Below the pieces are notes generated by a model. It saw only the letters and a list, made by a program, of their open reading frames with translations. It was not told where the DNA came from and ran no database searches. From Krasilnikoviella flava (GTDB lineage: Bacteria; Actinomycetota; Actinomycetes; Actinomycetales; Cellulomonadaceae): DNA of 64,000 nucleotides. Shown here piece by piece: positions 21,824-30,725 of this stretch. Numbering within the stretch: the first letter of the stretch is position 1; each line of letters starts with the position of its first letter. The translations under genes were made by a program, and so were the position numbers. The DNA lies in NCBI RefSeq assembly GCF_900167525.1, contig NZ_FUZQ01000002.1:248001-312000 (forward strand). Direction: 5' to 3'.

Positions 21824-21957
21824 TCCGCGGGCGAGCCGCCCGACCGTGACCGGACCCGTCCGGTCCGGGCGGCCCGCACCAAGTCCCGGCGAACGACGCC
21901 GGGCACGTGGCAGGGTCCGCGCGGACCCGCTCACCACGACTGCAGAAGGAGAAGCAG

Positions 21958-22668
21958 ATGGCAACGCGCAGCAAGGCATACCGCGCCGCGGCGGAGAAGA
22001 TCGACCGCGACGCCCTGTACGCCCCCCTCGAGGCGGTCCGCCTCGCCAAGGAGACCGCGACGGTCAAGTACGACGCGACCGTCGAGGTCGTGTTCCGCCT
22101 GGGCGTCGACCCCCGCAAGGCCGACCAGATGGTCCGCGGCACGGTCAACCTGCCTCACGGCACCGGCAAGACGGCCCGCGTGATCGTCTTCGCGAACGCC
22201 GCCAAGGCCGAGGAGGCCGTGGCCGCCGGCGCCGACGAGGTCGGTGGCGACGAGCTCATCGCCAAGGTGGCCGCCGGTTACACCGACTTCGACGCCGCCG
22301 TGGCGACGCCGGACCTCATGGGCAAGGTCGGTCGTCTGGGCAAGGTGCTGGGCCCCCGTGGTCTCATGCCGAACCCGAAGACCGGCACCGTGACGATGGA
22401 CGTGACCAAGGCCGTGTCCGACATCAAGGGCGGCAAGATCGAGTTCCGCGTGGACAAGCACTCGAACCTGCACTTCATCATCGGCAAGGCGTCCTTCGAC
22501 GAGACCGCGCTGGTGGAGAACTACGCCGTCGCGCTCGAGGAGGTCCTGCGCCTCAAGCCGACGTCGTCCAAGGGCCGGTACATCACCAAGGCCACGATGG
22601 CGACGACGATGGGCCCGGGCATCCCGCTCGACCAGTCGCGCACCACGAAGCTGCTCGACGAGGCGTGA
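21958..22668 (+). CDS. rplA: 50S ribosomal protein L1
   Basis: The 236-residue L1 forms the mobile stalk at the E site and in many bacteria represses its own mRNA. Conserved segments are [33 protein letters not shown] and [20 protein letters not shown]. The ATG at 21958 follows GAAGGAGAAG; an in-frame ATG 51 bases earlier is less likely. A strong hairpin follows, so the rplKA transcript ends here rather than running into rplJL. Confidence 0.98.
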
Positions 22669-24040: not shown

Positions 24041-24676
24041 ATGACACGAGCCACGGAGGAGCCTCCCGGTGGGACGCCGGACGCCGACGAGAGCCTGGGC
24101 GACCGGGCGGCGCGGGCGGTCCTGGAGTTCCGCGAGGGACGCACGGACGCCCTGACCGACCTGGTCCGCGAGGCGACGCCGCTGCTGTGGCACACGGTGC
24201 GCGCCCAGGGCGTGGACCGCGACGTGGCCGACGACGTGGTGCAGTCCACGTGGGCGGCGCTGGTCCGGCACGCGGAGACGATCGCCGAGCCGAAGGCCGT
24301 GCTGAAGTGGCTCCTGGTGACCGCTCGTCGGGCCGCGTGGGAGACGGTGCGCAAGGGCAGGGCCGACCTGCGGCGCCGCACCGAGCTCCCCGACGACGTG
24401 ACGGAGGGCTCCGCCGCTCTGCCCGACGCGGGACCGGGCCCGGAGGCCGAGGTCCTGAACGACGAGCGCGACCGGATCCTCTGGTCGTCGCTCCGGCGGC
24501 TCCCGGAGCGGTGCCAGGAGCTGTTGCGACTCGTCTCGCTCGCCGACCGCCCGGACTACAAGGCGATCTCGGCGTCGATCGGCATGCCGGTGGGAAGCAT
24601 CGGCGCGACACGGGGACGGTGCCTGGCGAAGCTGCGCGCCGTCCTCACCGAGCAAGGGGAGGCCTCGTGGACATGA
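24041..24676 (+). CDS. Sigma-70 family (ECF-like) RNA polymerase sigma factor
   Basis: The 211-residue protein has sigma region 2 (VREATPLLWHTVRAQGVDRD, ADDVVQSTWAALVRHAE, WLLVTARRAAWETVRK) and region 4 (LRRLPERCQELLRLVSLADR, then ISASIGMPVGSIGATRGRCL), with no region 1 or 3, as in ECF factors. It lies at the head of a collinear cassette with a 173-residue partner, a subtilase and a TPR-CHAT protease. I recall this arrangement in other actinobacteria. No membrane anti-sigma factor is encoded; control may come from the overlapping downstream gene. Confidence 0.9.
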   Translation: MTRATEEPPGGTPDADESLGDRAARAVLEFREGRTDALTDLVREATPLLWHTVRAQGVDRDVADDVVQSTWAALVRHAETIAEPKAVLKWLLVTARRAAWETVRKGRADLRRRTELPDDVTEGSAALPDAGPGPEAEVLNDERDRILWSSLRRLPERCQELLRLVSLADRPDYKAISASIGMPVGSIGATRGRCLAKLRAVLTEQGEASWT

Positions 24677-25194
24677 GCCGGAAGCACGAGAACGCGTGGG
24701 GTGCGCCCGTGCCCGGAGAGGACGAGCCCCTGGACGAGCGCGACCTCGCCGTCCTGGACCGGCTCGGCCGCGCCGTGCAGGTGGTGGACCCCGTGCCCGA
24801 GAGCCTGGTGGAGCGGTCGCTCTTCGCGATGACGCTCGCGCGCCTCGAGGCCGAGATCATGGAGCTGCAGCAGATCGAGGCCCCCGCCGGGTCCGTGCGC
24901 GGTGACGCCCCGCCGCTCGAGGCCCGCACCATCACCTTCACCCACGAGCGGCTCACCGTGATGATCGCGCTGTCCGCGGACGACGACGGCGCCCACGTGC
25001 GTCTCGACGGCTGGGTCGCGCCCGCCGCCACCCTCGTCGTCGAGCTGCGCCAGCCCGGCGGCGAGCGCACCACGACCGCCGACGACGACGGCCGCTTCGC
25101 CTTCACCGCCGTCGACCGCGGCCCCACCAGCCTGCTCGTGCGCCTGCCCGACGGCGGCGACGTCACCGTCGCCACGCCGGTCATCGAGCTCTGA
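24673..25194 (+). CDS. Partner protein of the sigma/protease cassette, beta-sandwich C-terminus
   Basis: The 173-residue soluble protein has an N-terminal helical part (about residues 1-75, ERDLAVLDRLGRAVQVVDPV and a Leu/Glu helix). The C-terminal half, WVAPAATLVVELRQPGGERT then ADDDGRFAFTAV, resembles carboxypeptidase-regulatory/transthyretin-like beta-sandwiches. There is no transmembrane segment or HXXXCXXC zinc motif. The ATG at 24673 overlaps the sigma stop (ATGA); a GTG at 24667 is an alternative. Tight coupling makes an anti-sigma or adaptor role plausible but unproven. Confidence 0.75.
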   Translation: MSRKHENAWGAPVPGEDEPLDERDLAVLDRLGRAVQVVDPVPESLVERSLFAMTLARLEAEIMELQQIEAPAGSVRGDAPPLEARTITFTHERLTVMIALSADDDGAHVRLDGWVAPAATLVVELRQPGGERTTTADDDGRFAFTAVDRGPTSLLVRLPDGGDVTVATPVIEL

Positions 25195-25261: not shown

Positions 25262-27100
25262 GTGACCGAGAGCCCTGTGGGACCGATGCCGAGCAGGCCT
25301 GAGCCGAGGATCCGGTTCCTGGACCCCAGCACGGCTCGACGGAGCCCTGGTCAGCGCCAGGTCGGATCGACCTGGTACGTGGCCGATCGTCTGCTGGTCC
25401 GCGGCGGCCTCCCTGACTCGATCCGTGGCCGCCTCCGTGCTCCGGAGGGCGCTTCTGGGCTGCCGGCGGTTCTCTCCCTGGAGCCGAGCGGGGACGAGGA
25501 CGCGGCCGCCGCCGGTTTCGAGCGGGCGGCTCGTCGCCAGGGGTGCCACGTCGGCGTCGAGGTCAGGTACCGGCACGGGGCCGAGCCCGCCGCGGACGCG
25601 CAGCCCCTCGACCTGGTCGACGAGGACCAGGGCTTCGTGCTCCGGCTGATCGCGGACCGGCCCGACGTGCAGCCGGACGCCTGGGAGGTCCTCGAGGAAG
25701 ACGCTCGCGACGAGTCCACCCCCTGGACCCTCAGTCTTGATCACGTGATGACGGCGCTCCCGTTCACGACTCACCCGTTCACGACTCACCCCTTCACGAC
25801 CCATCCGTTCACGACCCATCCGTTCACGACTCATCCGTTCACGACTCACCCGTTTGCGGCGCAGCCGTTCACGACTCACCCCTTCACGACCCACGGGATG
25901 GCGGAATACGGGGTGCCTGGTAGTGGTGGCCGGTCGCCGGTGGCATGGCTCGGGGCCCCGCCGACGCGCCGGGTCCGGGACGACGGAGACGAGTCGCGGA
26001 CCCCGGACGGCGCGGTCCGCCCGGTGGTAGCGATCGTCGACACAGGGATCGGGACCCATCCGTGGTTCGGTACCTATGGTCTCGATGCCGACCAGGACGA
26101 GGGCAACGGTGTGGTGATCCGCGGGTCGAAGCTGCCCGACGGTCCCATCGGGACCTACCCGGTGCCGGAGCTGCCCGAGGAGGACGCCGAGATCGGTGGT
26201 GCGAGCACCGCCCCCCTGACGGGGCCCCTCGATCCTGTCGCGGGGCACGGGACGTTCATCGCGGGGATCGTGCACCAGACCTGCCCTGACGCGCGACTTC
26301 TCCCGGTGCGTGTGGTCGGGGGGGCCGGTGCCGCGATCGAGTCCGAGGTGATCGAGTCATTGCGGCGACTGCTGCGGTTCCACCGCCAGGGACTCGCAGG
26401 GGAGGCGGGCTACGTCGCGGTCGACGTGGTGGTCCTCCCGATGGGCTATTACCACGAGCAGCCGGAAGACCTGCAGTGGGACCACCCGCTCTCCGACGTG
26501 CTGGCCCGCCTGCGTGACTCCGGGGTCGCGGTCGTCGTGGCCGCGGGCAATGACGGCGAGACGCGTCCCGAGTTCCCCGCCGCGTTCGCGCCCGAGGTGG
26601 ACCGGCGTGCTACCCCGCCCCGGATCGTTCGCGCACGGGACACGAGCGTGCAACGGCCCCCGATCCTCGCTGTAGGTGCCGCCAACCCCGACGGGTCGAC
26701 GGCATTGTTCAGCAACGACGGCCCCTGGGTGACGTGCGTCCGTCCCGGTGCGGCGGTGGTGAGCACCGTGCCACGGACTCTCGACGGCCCGAGCACGCCG
26801 TCGCTCCGCACCCGGGAACGGTTTGCCGACGCCGTGCGCTCGACGATCGATCCGGAGGGGTTCCAGGGAGGATTCGCTACCTGGAGCGGTACGTCGTTCG
26901 CCGCTCCCGTCCTTGCGGGTGAGATCGCCAGAGAGCTGCTCGCCGAGCGGAGTCGACCGGCCCTTCCGGCGGACGCTACGCTCGCGGGATCGGCCGATCG
27001 GGCCGATCGAGACGGCGAGGCGCGGGTGGCAGCGATCTGGCGAGCCATCTCCGGGGCGACGGGAGGCCTGTCGTTCGACGAGGCGTCAACCCCGGGGTGA
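25262..27100 (+). CDS. Cytoplasmic subtilisin-like (S8) serine protease with PFTTH repeats
   Basis: The 612-residue protein has no signal peptide. Residues 1-165 form an N-terminal domain. Residues 167-211 are nine tandem PFTTH-type pentapeptides. The S8 domain follows, with a full catalytic set: Asp260 (VAIVDTGIG), His329 (GHGTFIAGIV), oxyanion Asn430 (VAAGNDGE) and Ser545 (GTSFAAPV). The GTG start is preceded by GAGGAGG. It lies 67 bp after the partner gene and 17 bp before the CHAT gene. It should be an active intracellular protease, possibly activated by or activating the CHAT protein. The adjacent exported peptide ends in a matching HPFSSH. Confidence 0.93.
   Translation: MTESPVGPMPSRPEPRIRFLDPSTARRSPGQRQVGSTWYVADRLLVRGGLPDSIRGRLRAPEGASGLPAVLSLEPSGDEDAAAAGFERAARRQGCHVGVEVRYRHGAEPAADAQPLDLVDEDQGFVLRLIADRPDVQPDAWEVLEEDARDESTPWTLSLDHVMTALPFTTHPFTTHPFTTHPFTTHPFTTHPFTTHPFAAQPFTTHPFTTHGMAEYGVPGSGGRSPVAWLGAPPTRRVRDDGDESRTPDGAVRPVVAIVDTGIGTHPWFGTYGLDADQDEGNGVVIRGSKLPDGPIGTYPVPELPEEDAEIGGASTAPLTGPLDPVAGHGTFIAGIVHQTCPDARLLPVRVVGGAGAAIESEVIESLRRLLRFHRQGLAGEAGYVAVDVVVLPMGYYHEQPEDLQWDHPLSDVLARLRDSGVAVVVAAGNDGETRPEFPAAFAPEVDRRATPPRIVRARDTSVQRPPILAVGAANPDGSTALFSNDGPWVTCVRPGAAVVSTVPRTLDGPSTPSLRTRERFADAVRSTIDPEGFQGGFATWSGTSFAAPVLAGEIARELLAERSRPALPADATLAGSADRADRDGEARVAAIWRAISGATGGLSFDEASTPG
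25760..25894 (+). repeat. Nine tandem 15-bp repeats (PFTTH array) in the subtilase gene
   Basis: Nine 15-bp units encode PFTTH six times, PFAAQ once, then PFTTH twice. Units differ by synonymous changes (CAC/CAT, ACT/ACC, CCG/CCC), so the peptide is more conserved than the DNA; this suggests selection on protein sequence. The array lies between the N-terminal domain and the catalytic domain of the S8 protease. Confidence 0.95.
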
Positions 27101-27117: not shown

Positions 27118-29679
27118 ATGAGCGACGCGCTGGCGGCCGTCCGCGCCGAGGTCGACGAGATCCGGACGCACGCGCGCGCTCACCGACAGTTCGCGAGCGC
27201 ACTCGACCGTTATCAGAAGGCCCTGGTGCGGCTCGACGCGCTGGAGTCGATCGGGACAGAGGACCGTGTCGCCGCCGTGCGGGCGCGGGTGCTGGTCGGG
27301 ATCGCCGCGTGCGAGGGGGAACTCGGCGCGGACCGCGAGGTGGTCCTGGCAACGCTCGCCGCCGCGGCGGCGACGGCGCTCCGAGCCCAGAGCGCGGAGA
27401 TGGTGGCCCTCGTCCACGCGAACCTCGGCCTGCAGCTCCTGCGCTCGGGTGACCATGACGACGCCAGGCGCGAGCTCGACGCGGCTCTGGAAGGTCTGGT
27501 GGACGAGTCGGAGATGCTTCCGGTGCTCATCAACCGTGGCTCTCTCCGACTCGAGATCGGAGCCATCGACGATGCCGTGGACGATCTCCAGCGGTGTTTG
27601 GACATCGCGCGGGAGGTAGGGGACGAGCAACTGATCCCGATGGCCGAGCACAACCTGGGCTATGCCTTCTTCCTCGGGGGTGACCTGCCGGCGGCGCTCC
27701 GTGCGATGGACGCAGCCGCGGAGTCGGCACCACCAGAGCATGCGGGCGTCGGGCTGATGGACAAGGCCACGGTCCTCTACGAGGCGGGTCTTCTGACGGA
27801 TGCGGAAACCGCGCTCGGCCGGGCTGCGGAGATCCTCGATGCCACGGGTGGGGCACGAGACCTGTTGGACGCAGAGCTCGAGCGGGCCCGGTGCCTGGTG
27901 GGCCTGGCCCGGTTCGCCGAGGCGCAAGCACTCGCCGAGCAGGTCCGCGACCAGGCTCGCAGAGCGGGACACGGGATCATGGCGCTGCGCGCGGAGTTCG
28001 TGGGCCTGGACTCGAGGTTCGGCCGGATGGTCGAGAGGACGTCGACCGCGCAGGCCCTCCGGTTGGCCAAAGCAGCTGACGAGCTCTGTCGTCGTGCGGA
28101 GGAACAGCACGGAGCGGAGCGAGTCCTCATCGATGCCCGGCTGCTCGCAGCGGAGGCGTGGGCACGATCCGGGAGATTCGACCGTTCGCAGGCCGACCTG
28201 CTTGCGCTGCCTCCCGCCTCGGGGATGGCGCTCGGGGCTCGGGTGCGTGCGGAAGTCGTCTCGGCCCTGTGCGGCTACGGGGCCGGCATGCGCCGGTCCG
28301 GCCTGGCGGCGGTGCGTCGGGGGTATCGGCTGCTCGCTGAGCAGCGTCAGCAGCTCGGGGCCGTCGAGGCGGTGACCGCCGCAGCGGTCCACGGGATCAG
28401 GCTCCAGGGCGTGGACATCGACGCCGCCCTGCGCTCCACCTCGCCCGATCCGCTCTTCGACGCGCTGGAACGAGGGCGCGCGACGTTCGCCGGCTCGGGT
28501 CGTGTGCGACCTCCGGACGACCCGCGTACGGCGGAGCTCGTGGTGTCGGCCAGACGCCTCATGGAGAACGCCCGGCAGCTCAGGGGCAGCGAGCACGCCG
28601 GGGACGGCGAAGGCGGGCGCGGCGCCGACCTGCACCGTGACGCTCGCCGGCTGCAGCACCAGGCGAGGGAGCGGACGTGGCACTCGGGTGGGGTCGCCGG
28701 CGTGCCGACACCGGCCTCGGCGAGGGAGCTCCGGTCCGACCTTCGTGCGTCGGGCTCCGACCGGGTCGTGCTCAACCTGACCATGAACGGTGGGCGGGTA
28801 CGCGCGGTTCGCCTTGATGCTGACGGTGCGCGGCTGCTCGACCTCGGACCGCTGTCGCCATACCTGGAGCTCGTGCGGCGGATCCGCGCCGACCAGCAGG
28901 TGCTGGCGAACCGCATGCTGCCGACACCGATGCGGGAGGTCGTGCTCACCTCGCTGCGCGGCGCGCTGCGCCGTCTCGACGGCCTTCTACTCGGCACGCT
29001 CGACGTCGCAGGTCGGCACGTCTACGTCGCAGCCCGCGACAGGATCGTCTCGTTGCCGTGGGCGGCGTTGCCCTCCCGGCGAGGGTTGTCGACGGTCGTC
29101 AACTCCTGGGTGGCCCGAGGACACGCGGACTGGTCGCCCGGACCTGGGCTCTCGGTCGCCGGGTCCGGTCTGGTCCATGCTGTGACGGAGGCGGAGCAGG
29201 TCGCGGCGACGTGGGGGAGTGGTGCCACGCTCCTGACCGGCCCGGACGCCACCTGCGCCGCGGTGTCGCAGGCCCTCGAGGGCGCCCCCGTGGTCCACAT
29301 CGCCGCTCACGGGACCCACGAGCCGGACAACCCGGTGTTCTCGAGCCTTCTTCTGGCCGACGGTCCGCTGTTCGCCCACGAGCTGGACGGGCGCGATCTG
29401 TCGCGGTCGGTGATGGTCCTGTCGGCGTGCGACGTCGGCTCGGCGAGCATCCGGCACGGTGGTGAGCCGCTGGGGCTGACGAGCGTGCTGCTGCGCATGG
29501 GTGCCCGGGCCGTGATCGCCAGCGTCGCACCGCTACGGGACGACGTCGCCGTCCGTGTGATGCCCGCGCTGCACCATGGGCTCCGTGACGGGTTGCGGCC
29601 GGGGGCGGCCCTCGCCCGTGCCGTGGCGGACGAGCCCGAGCCGGTGCCCCTGGTGTGCTTCGGCCCCCTCGTCCTGTGA
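27118..29679 (+). CDS. TPR-CHAT caspase-like protease
   Basis: The 853-residue protein begins with a long helical TPR-type array (residues about 1-450, repeats such as LVHANLGLQLLRSGDHDDAR and AEHNLGYAFFLGGDLPAAL). A charged linker follows, then a C-terminal CHAT domain. The caspase dyad is visible: His731 in VHIAAHGTHEP and Cys771 in MVLSACDVGSA. TPR-CHAT proteins are cysteine proteases activated through their helical sensor part; known examples act in bacterial immunity and programmed death. It is coupled to the S8 protease 17 bp upstream, implying a two-protease cascade. Its natural substrate is unknown. Confidence 0.93.
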   Translation: MSDALAAVRAEVDEIRTHARAHRQFASALDRYQKALVRLDALESIGTEDRVAAVRARVLVGIAACEGELGADREVVLATLAAAAATALRAQSAEMVALVHANLGLQLLRSGDHDDARRELDAALEGLVDESEMLPVLINRGSLRLEIGAIDDAVDDLQRCLDIAREVGDEQLIPMAEHNLGYAFFLGGDLPAALRAMDAAAESAPPEHAGVGLMDKATVLYEAGLLTDAETALGRAAEILDATGGARDLLDAELERARCLVGLARFAEAQALAEQVRDQARRAGHGIMALRAEFVGLDSRFGRMVERTSTAQALRLAKAADELCRRAEEQHGAERVLIDARLLAAEAWARSGRFDRSQADLLALPPASGMALGARVRAEVVSALCGYGAGMRRSGLAAVRRGYRLLAEQRQQLGAVEAVTAAAVHGIRLQGVDIDAALRSTSPDPLFDALERGRATFAGSGRVRPPDDPRTAELVVSARRLMENARQLRGSEHAGDGEGGRGADLHRDARRLQHQARERTWHSGGVAGVPTPASARELRSDLRASGSDRVVLNLTMNGGRVRAVRLDADGARLLDLGPLSPYLELVRRIRADQQVLANRMLPTPMREVVLTSLRGALRRLDGLLLGTLDVAGRHVYVAARDRIVSLPWAALPSRRGLSTVVNSWVARGHADWSPGPGLSVAGSGLVHAVTEAEQVAATWGSGATLLTGPDATCAAVSQALEGAPVVHIAAHGTHEPDNPVFSSLLLADGPLFAHELDGRDLSRSVMVLSACDVGSASIRHGGEPLGLTSVLLRMGARAVIASVAPLRDDVAVRVMPALHHGLRDGLRPGAALARAVADEPEPVPLVCFGPLVL

Positions 29680-29782
29680 TGTGGACGACATCTTGCGCTC
29701 ACCCCGCCCGCCGCCGTTGTGATGTGGCTGCCGATCTCAACAGCCCGCCGCTGGGCTGGGACAACCGACGGAAGGACGTTCG

Positions 29783-29905
29783 ATGAAGACACGTGCCACC
29801 CGCGTCATCGCTGGTCTGCTGCTCGCCGCCACCGCCGTGGTCGGCGCCGCTGCTACGGCATCGGCGGAGCCCCCGGGCCCGCAGCATCCGTTCAGCTCTC
29901 ACTGA
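29783..29905 (+). CDS. Exported 40-residue peptide ending in HPFSSH
   Basis: A short gene with a strong ribosome site (GGAAGGA, 7 bp before the ATG) encodes a classical signal peptide. It has MKTR, a hydrophobic core (VIAGLLLAATAVVGAAA) and a signal-peptidase site after ATASA. The predicted mature peptide is only EPPGPQHPFSSH. Its C-terminus nearly matches the PFTTH units of the subtilase encoded 4 kb upstream. It follows the CHAT gene by 103 bp and precedes a strong terminator, so it is probably the last gene of the cassette. A short membrane-inserted peptide is the alternative reading. No homologue is recognised. Confidence 0.72.
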   Translation: MKTRATRVIAGLLLAATAVVGAAATASAEPPGPQHPFSSH

Positions 29906-29929
29906 CGGCAACAGGTCCCCGTCTGTGAG

Positions 29930-29969
29930 CGGGCGGTGGGTCGGCCCGAGCGTGCCGACCCACCGCCCG
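29930..29969 (+). terminator. Intrinsic terminator after the peptide gene
   Basis: A 16-bp perfect stem (CGGGCGGTGGGTCGGC and its complement) closes an 8-nt loop and is followed by TCGTCGTGT. It separates the protease/peptide cassette from the rplJ leader that begins just after it. Confidence 0.85.
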
Positions 29970-29989
29970 TCGTCGTGTAGAGTTCTCAG

Positions 29990-30160
29990 GTAACCCAAGA
30001 CCGCCGGTCGTCCGACGCTGCCCGGGCTCGCCCAGGAAGCCGAAGGCCGAAGTCCCGTGAAGAGTGCGGGGGCCTGCGTAGGTGACACGACGACGATCAC
30101 ACAGCCTGGCTGTGAGCTCCGAGCCCCGTGCGCACCTGCGCCGGGGCTCTTTTCTTTCGC
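29990..30160 (+). promoter_or_regulatory. Ribosomal protein L10 leader (rplJL mRNA)
   Basis: The 200-bp untranslated region before rplJ contains the GGGGGCCTGCGTAGGTGA segment and flanking helices typical of actinobacterial L10 leaders, to which the L10(L12)4 complex binds. It ends in a terminator hairpin followed by a T-rich run, so control is probably by attenuation: excess L10 would favour termination. Exact boundaries are approximate. Confidence 0.7.
30121..30157 (+). terminator. Attenuator hairpin in the rplJ leader
   Basis: GAGCCCCG pairs with CGGGGCTC (8 bp, 13-nt loop) and is followed by TTTTCTTT, the best U-tract of any terminator in this window. It lies 38 bp before the rplJ start, inside the leader, so it must be bypassed for rplJL expression. 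Confidence 0.8.
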
Positions 30161-30194
30161 AGGGACCGGTGGCACCACCACCGGAAGGATTGCC

Positions 30195-30725
30195 ATGGCG
30201 AGGCCGGACAAGGCAGCCGCTGTCGCGGAGGTCGCGGACAAGTTCCGTGACTCCAACGCGGCGATGCTGACCGAGTACCGCGGGCTCACCGTCGCTCAGC
30301 TCAAGGAGCTGCGTCGGTCGCTCAGCGGCAACGCAACCTACGCCGTGGTGAAGAACACGCTGACGTCCATCGCGGCCAAGGAGGCCGGGATCGACGCGTT
30401 CGAGGCGGACCTCAAGGGTCCCTCCGCGATCGCGTTCGTGACCGGTGACCCGGTCGAGGCCGCCAAGGGTCTGCGTGACTTCGCCAAGGCGAACCCTGCA
30501 CTGGTCATCAAGGGCGGTGTCCTTGACGGGAAGCCGCTGACCGCTGCAGAGGTCACCAAGCTCGCGGACCTCGAGTCCCGCGAGGTCCTGCTGGCCAAGA
30601 CGGTCGGCGCGATGAAGGCCAAGCTCTACCAGGCTGCCTACGCCTTCACCGCGAAGCCGGCCCAGGCCGCTCGCGTCATCGATGCCCTGCGTCAGAAGCA
30701 GGAATCGGAGGCCGCTGCCGCCTGA
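30195..30725 (+). CDS. rplJ: 50S ribosomal protein L10
   Basis: The 176-residue L10 anchors L7/L12 dimers to the stalk base. The rRNA-binding N-terminal domain is clear ([41 protein letters not shown]). The C-terminal helix that carries L7/L12 follows. The ATG at 30195 is preceded by GGAAGGA. Expression is probably limited by the leader attenuator directly upstream, and rplL follows after 83 bp. Confidence 0.97.

What the first reader, a model, noticed from the sequence alone, without database searches (positions are those of the whole stretch)
29783..29905. A 40-residue exported peptide whose C-terminus copies the repeat unit of the upstream subtilase
The micro-gene has a strong ribosome site, a textbook signal peptide and a predicted mature peptide EPPGPQHPFSSH. 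The subtilase in the same cassette carries eight PFTTH units and one PFAAQ, most flanked by His as HPFTTH. A shared motif between a protease and a tiny secreted neighbour is unlikely by chance. The array could be a tethered mimic of the peptide (autoinhibition), or both could be ligands or substrates of the same factor. A puzzle is that the protease looks cytoplasmic while the peptide looks exported.
Basis: partly seen in the sequence, partly recalled or inferred. Interest (0 to 1): 0.88.

Follow-up and report, generated by a model that had tools for sequence, protein, structure and literature searches.

The report
Exported peptide echoing a protease repeat
A tiny gene at the end of a bacterial protease operon encodes a peptide that looks exported and ends in a short motif much like one that the operon's own protease repeats in its linker; a few related bacteria carry such a gene at the same spot, which hints at a peptide-controlled protease switch that remains untested.

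Summary
Window 29783-29905 is a 40-codon ORF with a strong ribosome site, a signal-peptide-like N-terminus and the end QHPFSSH. Of 12,948 ORF ends, each compared with its own locus's subtilase array, it ranks first. The array (8 PFTTH, 1 PFAAQ) is a disordered linker before the S8 domain. By my rule 168 of 196 unique loci have an array, with 89 distinct units. The micro-gene is rare: 5 intact and 1 shortened copy among 75 own-family loci whose CHAT end was seen, 0 of 105 others. The closest relatives (4D.3, I. cucumis) lack it, so the array does not need it. Four of the five intact peptides fit array units of other loci strikingly (ranks 2, 6, 11, 16 of 15,262; the fifth 113), but only the window's and QY 916's match the local repeat closely. 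In Oerskovia merdavium it is a recent 546-nt insertion. Best reading: a Phr-like propeptide of the adjacent TPR-CHAT protease, with the array as a built-in form of the same ligand (inferred, 0.35). It is not an RRNPP member. Expression and binding are untested.

The parts
24041..24676 (+). ECF sigma factor, first gene of the cassette
   Evidence: Sigma70_r2 E 1.1e-6, TIGR02937 E 4.1e-16
24673..25194 (+). 173-aa protein with a weak CarboxypepD_reg-like domain
   Evidence: PF13620 E 1.9e-5, 25.4 bits, below the curated cut-off of 32.3
25262..27100 (+). S8 subtilase without an evident signal peptide (by eye); D260, H329, S545 invariant in 28 aligned sequences, window included
   Evidence: PF00082 E 2.6e-16; alignment A1
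25298..25756 (+). folded N-terminal (prodomain-like) domain, residues 13-165, of the subtilase
   Evidence: AlphaFold2 model from 28 sequences, ten-residue blocks 11-160 at pLDDT 69-93; best Foldseek hits are pro-subtilisins, aligned ranges not shown
25760..25894 (+). array: 8 PFTTH and 1 PFAAQ, inside a stretch (residues 167-231) with pLDDT under 50
27118..29679 (+). TPR-CHAT protease, 853 aa; H731 and C771 invariant in 27 aligned sequences, window included; TPR Asn139 in 26 of 27, Asn179 in 27 of 27
   Evidence: CHAT PF12770 E 3.7e-26, TPR_12 E 3.1e-7; model mean pLDDT 88.7
29770..29776 (+). ribosome-binding site GGAAGGA of the micro-gene
29783..29905 (+). 40-codon micro-gene: signal-peptide-like N-terminus, predicted mature EPPGPQHPFSSH
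29929..29970 (+). 17-bp hairpin after the micro-gene, before the rplJ leader; no T tract
   Evidence: stretch 29903-29985 folds at -48.1 kcal/mol, z -4.55; the terminator scan, which asks for a T tract, found none

Best explanation
The micro-gene encodes an exported propeptide and is the accessory last gene of a cassette of ECF sigma factor, small protein, S8 subtilase and TPR-CHAT protease. Its C-terminal 5-7 residues are a free form of the ligand that the subtilase carries as a tandem array in the linker behind its N-terminal domain. Proposed working: the peptide is exported, trimmed, taken back up by an oligopeptide importer and bound in the TPR groove of the CHAT protease, where it competes with or substitutes for the subtilase array, so that the state of the protease pair, and through it the ECF sigma factor, depends on peptide in the surroundings. 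Shown: the gene, its recurrence at one position, the likeness of motif and array, intact catalytic residues in both proteases, a disordered array in the model. Inferred: expression, export, import, binding to TPR, effect on proteolysis and on sigma.
For: Own-array rank 1 of 12,948 ORF ends; four of five intact micro-ORFs lie in the top 16 of 15,262 against arrays of other loci (ranks 2, 6, 11, 16; the fifth 113; the shortened one 679). The pattern [HN]P[FYLMI][TS].{1,2}H at ORF ends: 3 of 8171 in 107 loci (some genomes twice), all three exported-looking micro-ORFs after CHAT; 0 of 7580 in 100 further loci. The start codons lie 93-103 nt after the CHAT stop in window, L035, L038 and L043 and 77 nt in L123, each behind a purine-rich site. 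Window versus QY 916: 8 synonymous and 3 non-synonymous codons, dN/dS about 0.27, with one non-synonymous codon before codon 38. Recent gain in Oerskovia merdavium. The arrangement meets three of the five RRNPP criteria listed in PMC10075063 (passages) and a fourth, the Sec signal, by my heuristic only. Conserved TPR asparagines recall RapJ Asn225, which holds the PhrC backbone (PMC3601965, passages).
Against: The gene is absent from 69 of the 75 own-family loci with a visible CHAT end and from all 105 others, including the closest relatives. Peptide and local array do not co-vary across species: own-array ranks 1, 2, 79 and 2419 for the four with arrays, and the first two peptides are near-identical. 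Looser end patterns also hit unrelated ORFs: 2 of 6 and 11 of 15 hits, and in the rank list unrelated ORFs stand between the micro-ORFs (rank 1 is one). No complex could be modelled, so TPR binding has no direct support; Asn in TPRs is common. The receptor is 853 aa, outside the RRNPP range. Array units of other genera (APFTRG, NPFMKT, GYGDGV) share the motif loosely or not at all.
Confidence: 0.35

Rival explanations
1. The motif is a ligand of the subtilase itself: the array next to the N-terminal domain occupies or guards the active-site cleft (tethered autoinhibitor), and the peptide is a diffusible competitor or substrate-like inhibitor.
For: The array directly follows the folded N-terminal domain, the place where pro-subtilisins are processed (established knowledge); best fold matches are pro-subtilisins.
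Against: Array units differ widely between lineages (89 units, rotations merged) while the active site is conserved; 28 of 196 loci have no array by my rule; exported peptide and cytoplasmic enzyme need an import step.
Confidence: 0.15
2. The peptide is an outward signal or weapon: exported to enter neighbours and trip or block their own cassettes; strains exchange such genes.
For: Patchy presence; gain by insertion in O. merdavium; between window and QY 916 the two 100-nt pieces over the spacer and most of the micro-gene are 86% and 94% identical while CHAT upstream is 56-70%; the window peptide matches the QY 916 array unit exactly.
Against: The next 100-nt piece, over the gene's end and the hairpin, is only 70% identical, and the CHAT 3' end is conserved in other relatives too. 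No immunity gene or toxin-like feature noticed; about 12 residues; PADLOC gives only weak subtilase and BovA matches.
Confidence: 0.12
3. The gene is real and exported, but the likeness is a by-product (short Pro/Ser/Thr/His motif, convergent) and the peptide acts elsewhere, for example at the envelope.
For: Own-array match fails for O. merdavium and is weak for I. halalbus; another exported-looking small ORF without the motif follows CHAT in four loci of another family.
Against: Ranks of the micro-ORFs against array units are extreme, and three of them are the 3 of 8171 ORF ends with the stricter pattern.
Confidence: 0.25
4. Not translated: a spacer ORF.
For: No expression data; small size; shortened in I. 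halotolerans CG 23.
Against: Ribosome site, synonymous excess in codons 1-37, recurrence with a signal-peptide-like start at the same place in other genera.
Confidence: 0.08

Closest known systems
ECF54 sigma-factor neighbourhood (carboxypeptidase-, subtilase- and CHAT-domain proteins), PMC8999054
   Same: Same set of neighbours; control of sigma by proteolysis was proposed there (passages read).
   Different: No array and no exported peptide mentioned in the passages read; the ECF54 model itself was not on hand.
Rap-Phr and other RRNPP quorum-sensing pairs (PMC10075063, PMC3601965, PMC11343458)
   Same: Small Sec-type propeptide encoded beside a TPR protein; signal typically at the C-terminus; duplicated copies of the signal known in propeptides (passages).
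   Different: The TPR protein here is an 853-aa CHAT protease, in Actinomycetota, with the tandem copies inside a partner protease; no RRNPP receptor among the 27 PDB sequences matched or the 50 fold matches listed of 1373.
Csx29 (TPR-CHAT of type III-E CRISPR, Craspase) with CASP-sigma, PMC10028731
   Same: TPR-CHAT protease tied to an ECF-like sigma factor (passages); among best fold matches.
   Different: Works with Cas7-11 and target RNA on Csx30; no subtilase, array or exported peptide in the passages read.
Pro-subtilisins (Tk-subtilisin, subtilisin BPN')
   Same: S8 domain behind a folded N-terminal domain.
   Different: Here 65 disordered residues with a tandem array lie between the two, and no signal peptide is seen.
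DdvA transmembrane anti-sigma factor (PDB 8rw5, 8rot)
   Same: Best Foldseek E-value for the TPR-CHAT model; sigma context.
   Different: Overall superposition is poor (TM 0.2-0.3); described as transmembrane. No paper on it was found.

Membership tests
RRNPP quorum-sensing system | propeptide of 10-100 aa | tested here: met
   40 aa; range from PMC10075063
RRNPP quorum-sensing system | propeptide with a Sec signal | tested here: inconclusive
   passes my heuristic; SignalP not available
RRNPP quorum-sensing system | receptor with TPRs | tested here: met
   Pfam TPR matches, helical repeats 2-456
RRNPP quorum-sensing system | receptor 250-500 aa | tested here: not met
   853 aa
RRNPP quorum-sensing system | genes adjacent (-60 to 400 bp) | tested here: met
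   103 nt
RRNPP quorum-sensing system | receptor related to Rap, NprR, PlcR, PrgX or Rgg | tested here: not met
   none among 27 PDB sequences matched nor the 50 fold matches listed of 1373
ECF54 cassette | ECF sigma with carboxypeptidase-like, subtilase and CHAT neighbours | tested here: met
   the carboxypeptidase-like match is below its cut-off
ECF54 cassette | match of the sigma factor to the ECF54 model | not testable with these tools
   no ECF group models on hand
CHAT protease | CHAT domain with His and Cys | tested here: met
   PF12770; H731, C771 in 27 of 27
S8 subtilase | Asp-His-Ser triad | tested here: met
   D260, H329, S545 invariant in 28 rows
Subtilisin I9-type zymogen | I9-like prodomain that inhibits the enzyme | tested here: inconclusive
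   folded domain 13-165; pro-subtilisins are best hits but aligned ranges not shown; no I9 Pfam match at E 1

The most novel reading that the evidence does not exclude
A peptide-signalling logic outside the known receptor families: in Actinomycetota a caspase-like TPR-CHAT protease reads a short Pro-x-Thr-x-Ser/Gly-His peptide, which exists both as a built-in tandem array in the partner subtilase's linker and, in some strains, as an exported, horizontally gained propeptide, so that a protease cascade that sets an ECF sigma factor becomes sensitive to neighbours.
Probability: 0.2. Interest if true: 0.9.

Novelty: new variant of a known kind. Interest (0 to 1): 0.7.

Why it matters
Relatives of the subtilase are common in Actinomycetota (130 of 221 genomes of the family at E 0.001, some of these weak; 109 of 198 genomes of another genus at E 1e-40), most of the fetched ones with a CHAT gene behind them, and the input signal of the cassette is not given in what I read. 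A micro-gene that displays an array-like motif at a free C-terminus gives a concrete candidate ligand that can be synthesised and tested on purified proteins. If it binds, it explains the array as a ligand and adds peptide communication through a protease rather than a transcription factor or phosphatase.

Tried and rejected
Chance likeness: judged unlikely from ranks and pattern counts. The pattern was shaped after I had seen the window and I. halalbus peptides and some arrays, so only L123 is an independent hit of it; one search uses no pattern. A required partner of every array: rejected. Metal-binding His array as the general role: put aside, since many units lack His. Copies elsewhere in genomes: the window peptide as query matched 213 of 221 family genomes at E 10, but only itself and QY 916 strongly, the next at 0.003. 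Over 340 genomes of the class seven others passed E 1e-4; the three best were other secreted proteins without the end motif or a CHAT or S8 gene in the 3-kb locus; the other four were not opened and lie in frames of 203 to 641 aa. A pattern for PMTAS[HR] plus stop hit 4 of 221 genomes: the two known ones, and two (G123, G207) without an exported-looking start. Rfam: nothing at gathering scores in 29600-30250. Defence library: weak only. Promoter/terminator scan: nothing. Papers: judged by listed titles and abstract beginnings plus the passages cited, I saw none on the array or on an exported peptide in this cassette.

Full report
What is there. The window lies in a genome of the Isoptericola group (named relatives; window at G000:C8). 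Downstream of an L1-like ribosomal protein ORF (21907-22668) and upstream of rplJ, rplL and rpoB (all named by eye) lies a cassette: an ECF sigma factor (24041-24676), a 173-aa protein with a sub-threshold CarboxypepD_reg match, an S8 subtilase (25262-27100), a TPR-CHAT protease (27118-29679), and the micro-gene (29783-29905), followed by a 17-bp hairpin and the rplJ leader. The review PMC8999054 (passages) names carboxypeptidase, subtilase and CHAT proteins as the conserved context of group ECF54, so this is very likely an ECF54 cassette; the group model could not be tested.

The array. In the window the subtilase has 8 PFTTH and 1 PFAAQ at 25760-25894. An AlphaFold2 model from 28 sequences has a folded N-terminal domain (13-165), a stretch 167-231 with pLDDT under 50, and the S8 domain, itself modelled with mixed confidence (mean pLDDT 67.9). 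Catalytic residues are invariant in the 28 aligned sequences. With the window and after removal of duplicates 196 remained. By my repeat rule 168 of 196 have an array (56 of 79 in the window's family, 112 of 117 outside). In 166 of the 168 it starts more than 40 residues before the GHGT motif; in the other two no GHGT was found. There are 89 distinct units with rotations merged (100 strings), mostly of 6 residues (144), else 5 (18), 7 (5) or 12 (1). Five of the 168 have fewer than 3 exact copies, QY 916 among them. Units drift by lineage: PFTTH, PFTSH, PYTQPF, PYTDPH, NPLTASH, NPMTAGH, NPITMGH, APFTRG, NPFTRT, GYGDGV. The family assignment of loci was mine, by locus number.

The micro-gene family. 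Position scans and an ORF-end scan found six micro-ORFs just after CHAT: the window (end QHPFSSH), Isoptericola sp. QY 916 L035 (QHPFTSS, 95% identical over 39 residues), I. halalbus L038 (PNPMTASH), Oerskovia merdavium L043 (TPKTGSH), G021/L123 of another genus (INPYTVGH), and I. halotolerans CG 23 L039 (MPMTASR, shortened, no clear ribosome site). They align as A3. My first scan missed L043 and L123, so others with weak signals may be missed too. The CHAT end was visible in 75 of 79 own-family loci and 105 of 117 others; no array-like micro-ORF was seen in the others. Profile A3 against 221 family genomes found no further strong member. So 5 intact plus 1 shortened: a rare accessory gene. 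The nearest subtilases, L031 (89%) and L032 (82%), have only 73 and 76 nt from the CHAT stop to the leader motif ACCCAAGACC, against 313 in the window.

Is the likeness real? Without any pattern, I scored the last 8 residues of 15,262 ORF ends (22-110 aa readings, six frames, 196 loci) against array units of other loci by local alignment. The window ORF is rank 2, L123 rank 6, I. halalbus rank 11, QY 916 rank 16, O. merdavium rank 113, the shortened one 679; the remaining high ranks, rank 1 included, are unrelated frames, many on the other strand. Against the own array (12,948 ORF ends), window and QY 916 are ranks 1 and 2, I. halalbus 79, O. merdavium 2419. So the motif is shared at the level of the family; close copying of the local unit is seen in two genomes whose peptides are nearly identical and thus not independent. 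The window peptide's PFSSH is the exact array unit of QY 916. The I. halalbus end NPMTASH is one change from the first unit NPLTASH of another Isoptericola (L106) and from NPMTAGH in L105.

Movement and selection. O. merdavium L043 and O. enterophila L044 have CHAT proteins 89-100% identical in windows, yet L043 has 648 nt from CHAT stop to leader motif and L044 102, and the extra 546 nt carry the micro-gene and a second, degenerate CHAT 3' end: a recent gain. Between window and QY 916, pieces of 100 nt give 56-70% in CHAT upstream of its last 400 nt, 83-93% in the CHAT 3' end, 86% and 94% over the spacer and most of the micro-gene, 70% over its end and the hairpin, and 94% or more in the next pieces to rplJ. 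The CHAT 3' end and rplJ are conserved in other relatives too, so exchange is likely but not proven. Between these two the ORF has 8 synonymous and 3 non-synonymous codons, dN/dS about 0.27, with two of the three non-synonymous codons among the last three: a conserved precursor with a variable end, on very small numbers.

How it may work. A small exported propeptide beside a TPR protein, with the signal at the C-terminus, is the anatomy of Rap-Phr and related pairs. The cassette meets propeptide length, TPRs and adjacency, passes only my crude test for a signal peptide, and fails receptor length and receptor homology (criteria from PMC10075063, passages). Duplicated copies of a signal inside a propeptide are known (PMC11343458, passages); here the tandem copies sit inside the partner protease. 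TPR-CHAT proteins are linked to sigma control in Csx29/CASP-sigma (PMC10028731, passages), and Csx29 is among the best fold matches. I therefore prefer the reading that peptide and array are two forms of one ligand, the TPR groove being the likeliest reader (Asn139 in 26 of 27, Asn179 in 27 of 27 rows), and that the exported form lets surroundings act on the protease pair. Every functional step is inference.

Limits. No expression data, no SignalP, no complex prediction, one genome per species, and a literature library of open-licence papers only; the two ECF surveys cited by the review were not held.

Noticed in passing
L268:7061-7264, L269:7071-7259, L276:7113-7301, L280:6633-6782 (loci as oriented, subtilase on +): Four loci of another family (f33) have a different exported-looking small ORF after CHAT, with a [KR]D[TS]GW motif and no array likeness; a long ORF on the opposite strand follows. 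Whether it belongs to the cassette is open.
   Followed up: partly
196 unique loci, subtilase linker: A tandem array before the S8 catalytic His motif is present in 168 of 196 loci with 89 distinct units, as if homogenised and replaced within lineages.
   Followed up: partly
L043:10332-10870: Degenerate second CHAT 3' end downstream of the micro-gene, sharing GACGAACCCGTG with the intact end, where O. enterophila reads GACGAGCCGGTG: trace of the recombination that brought the gene.
   Followed up: partly
L102 (turned so that the subtilase is on +), the 300 nt after the CHAT stop: Spacer that begins like the window's (GTGGACGACATC) and has a frame ending PLPATGH without a signal-peptide-like start; perhaps a relic of the micro-gene.
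   Followed up: no
window 24673-25194: Small protein between sigma factor and subtilase; a candidate sigma inhibitor and protease substrate by position only.
   Followed up: no
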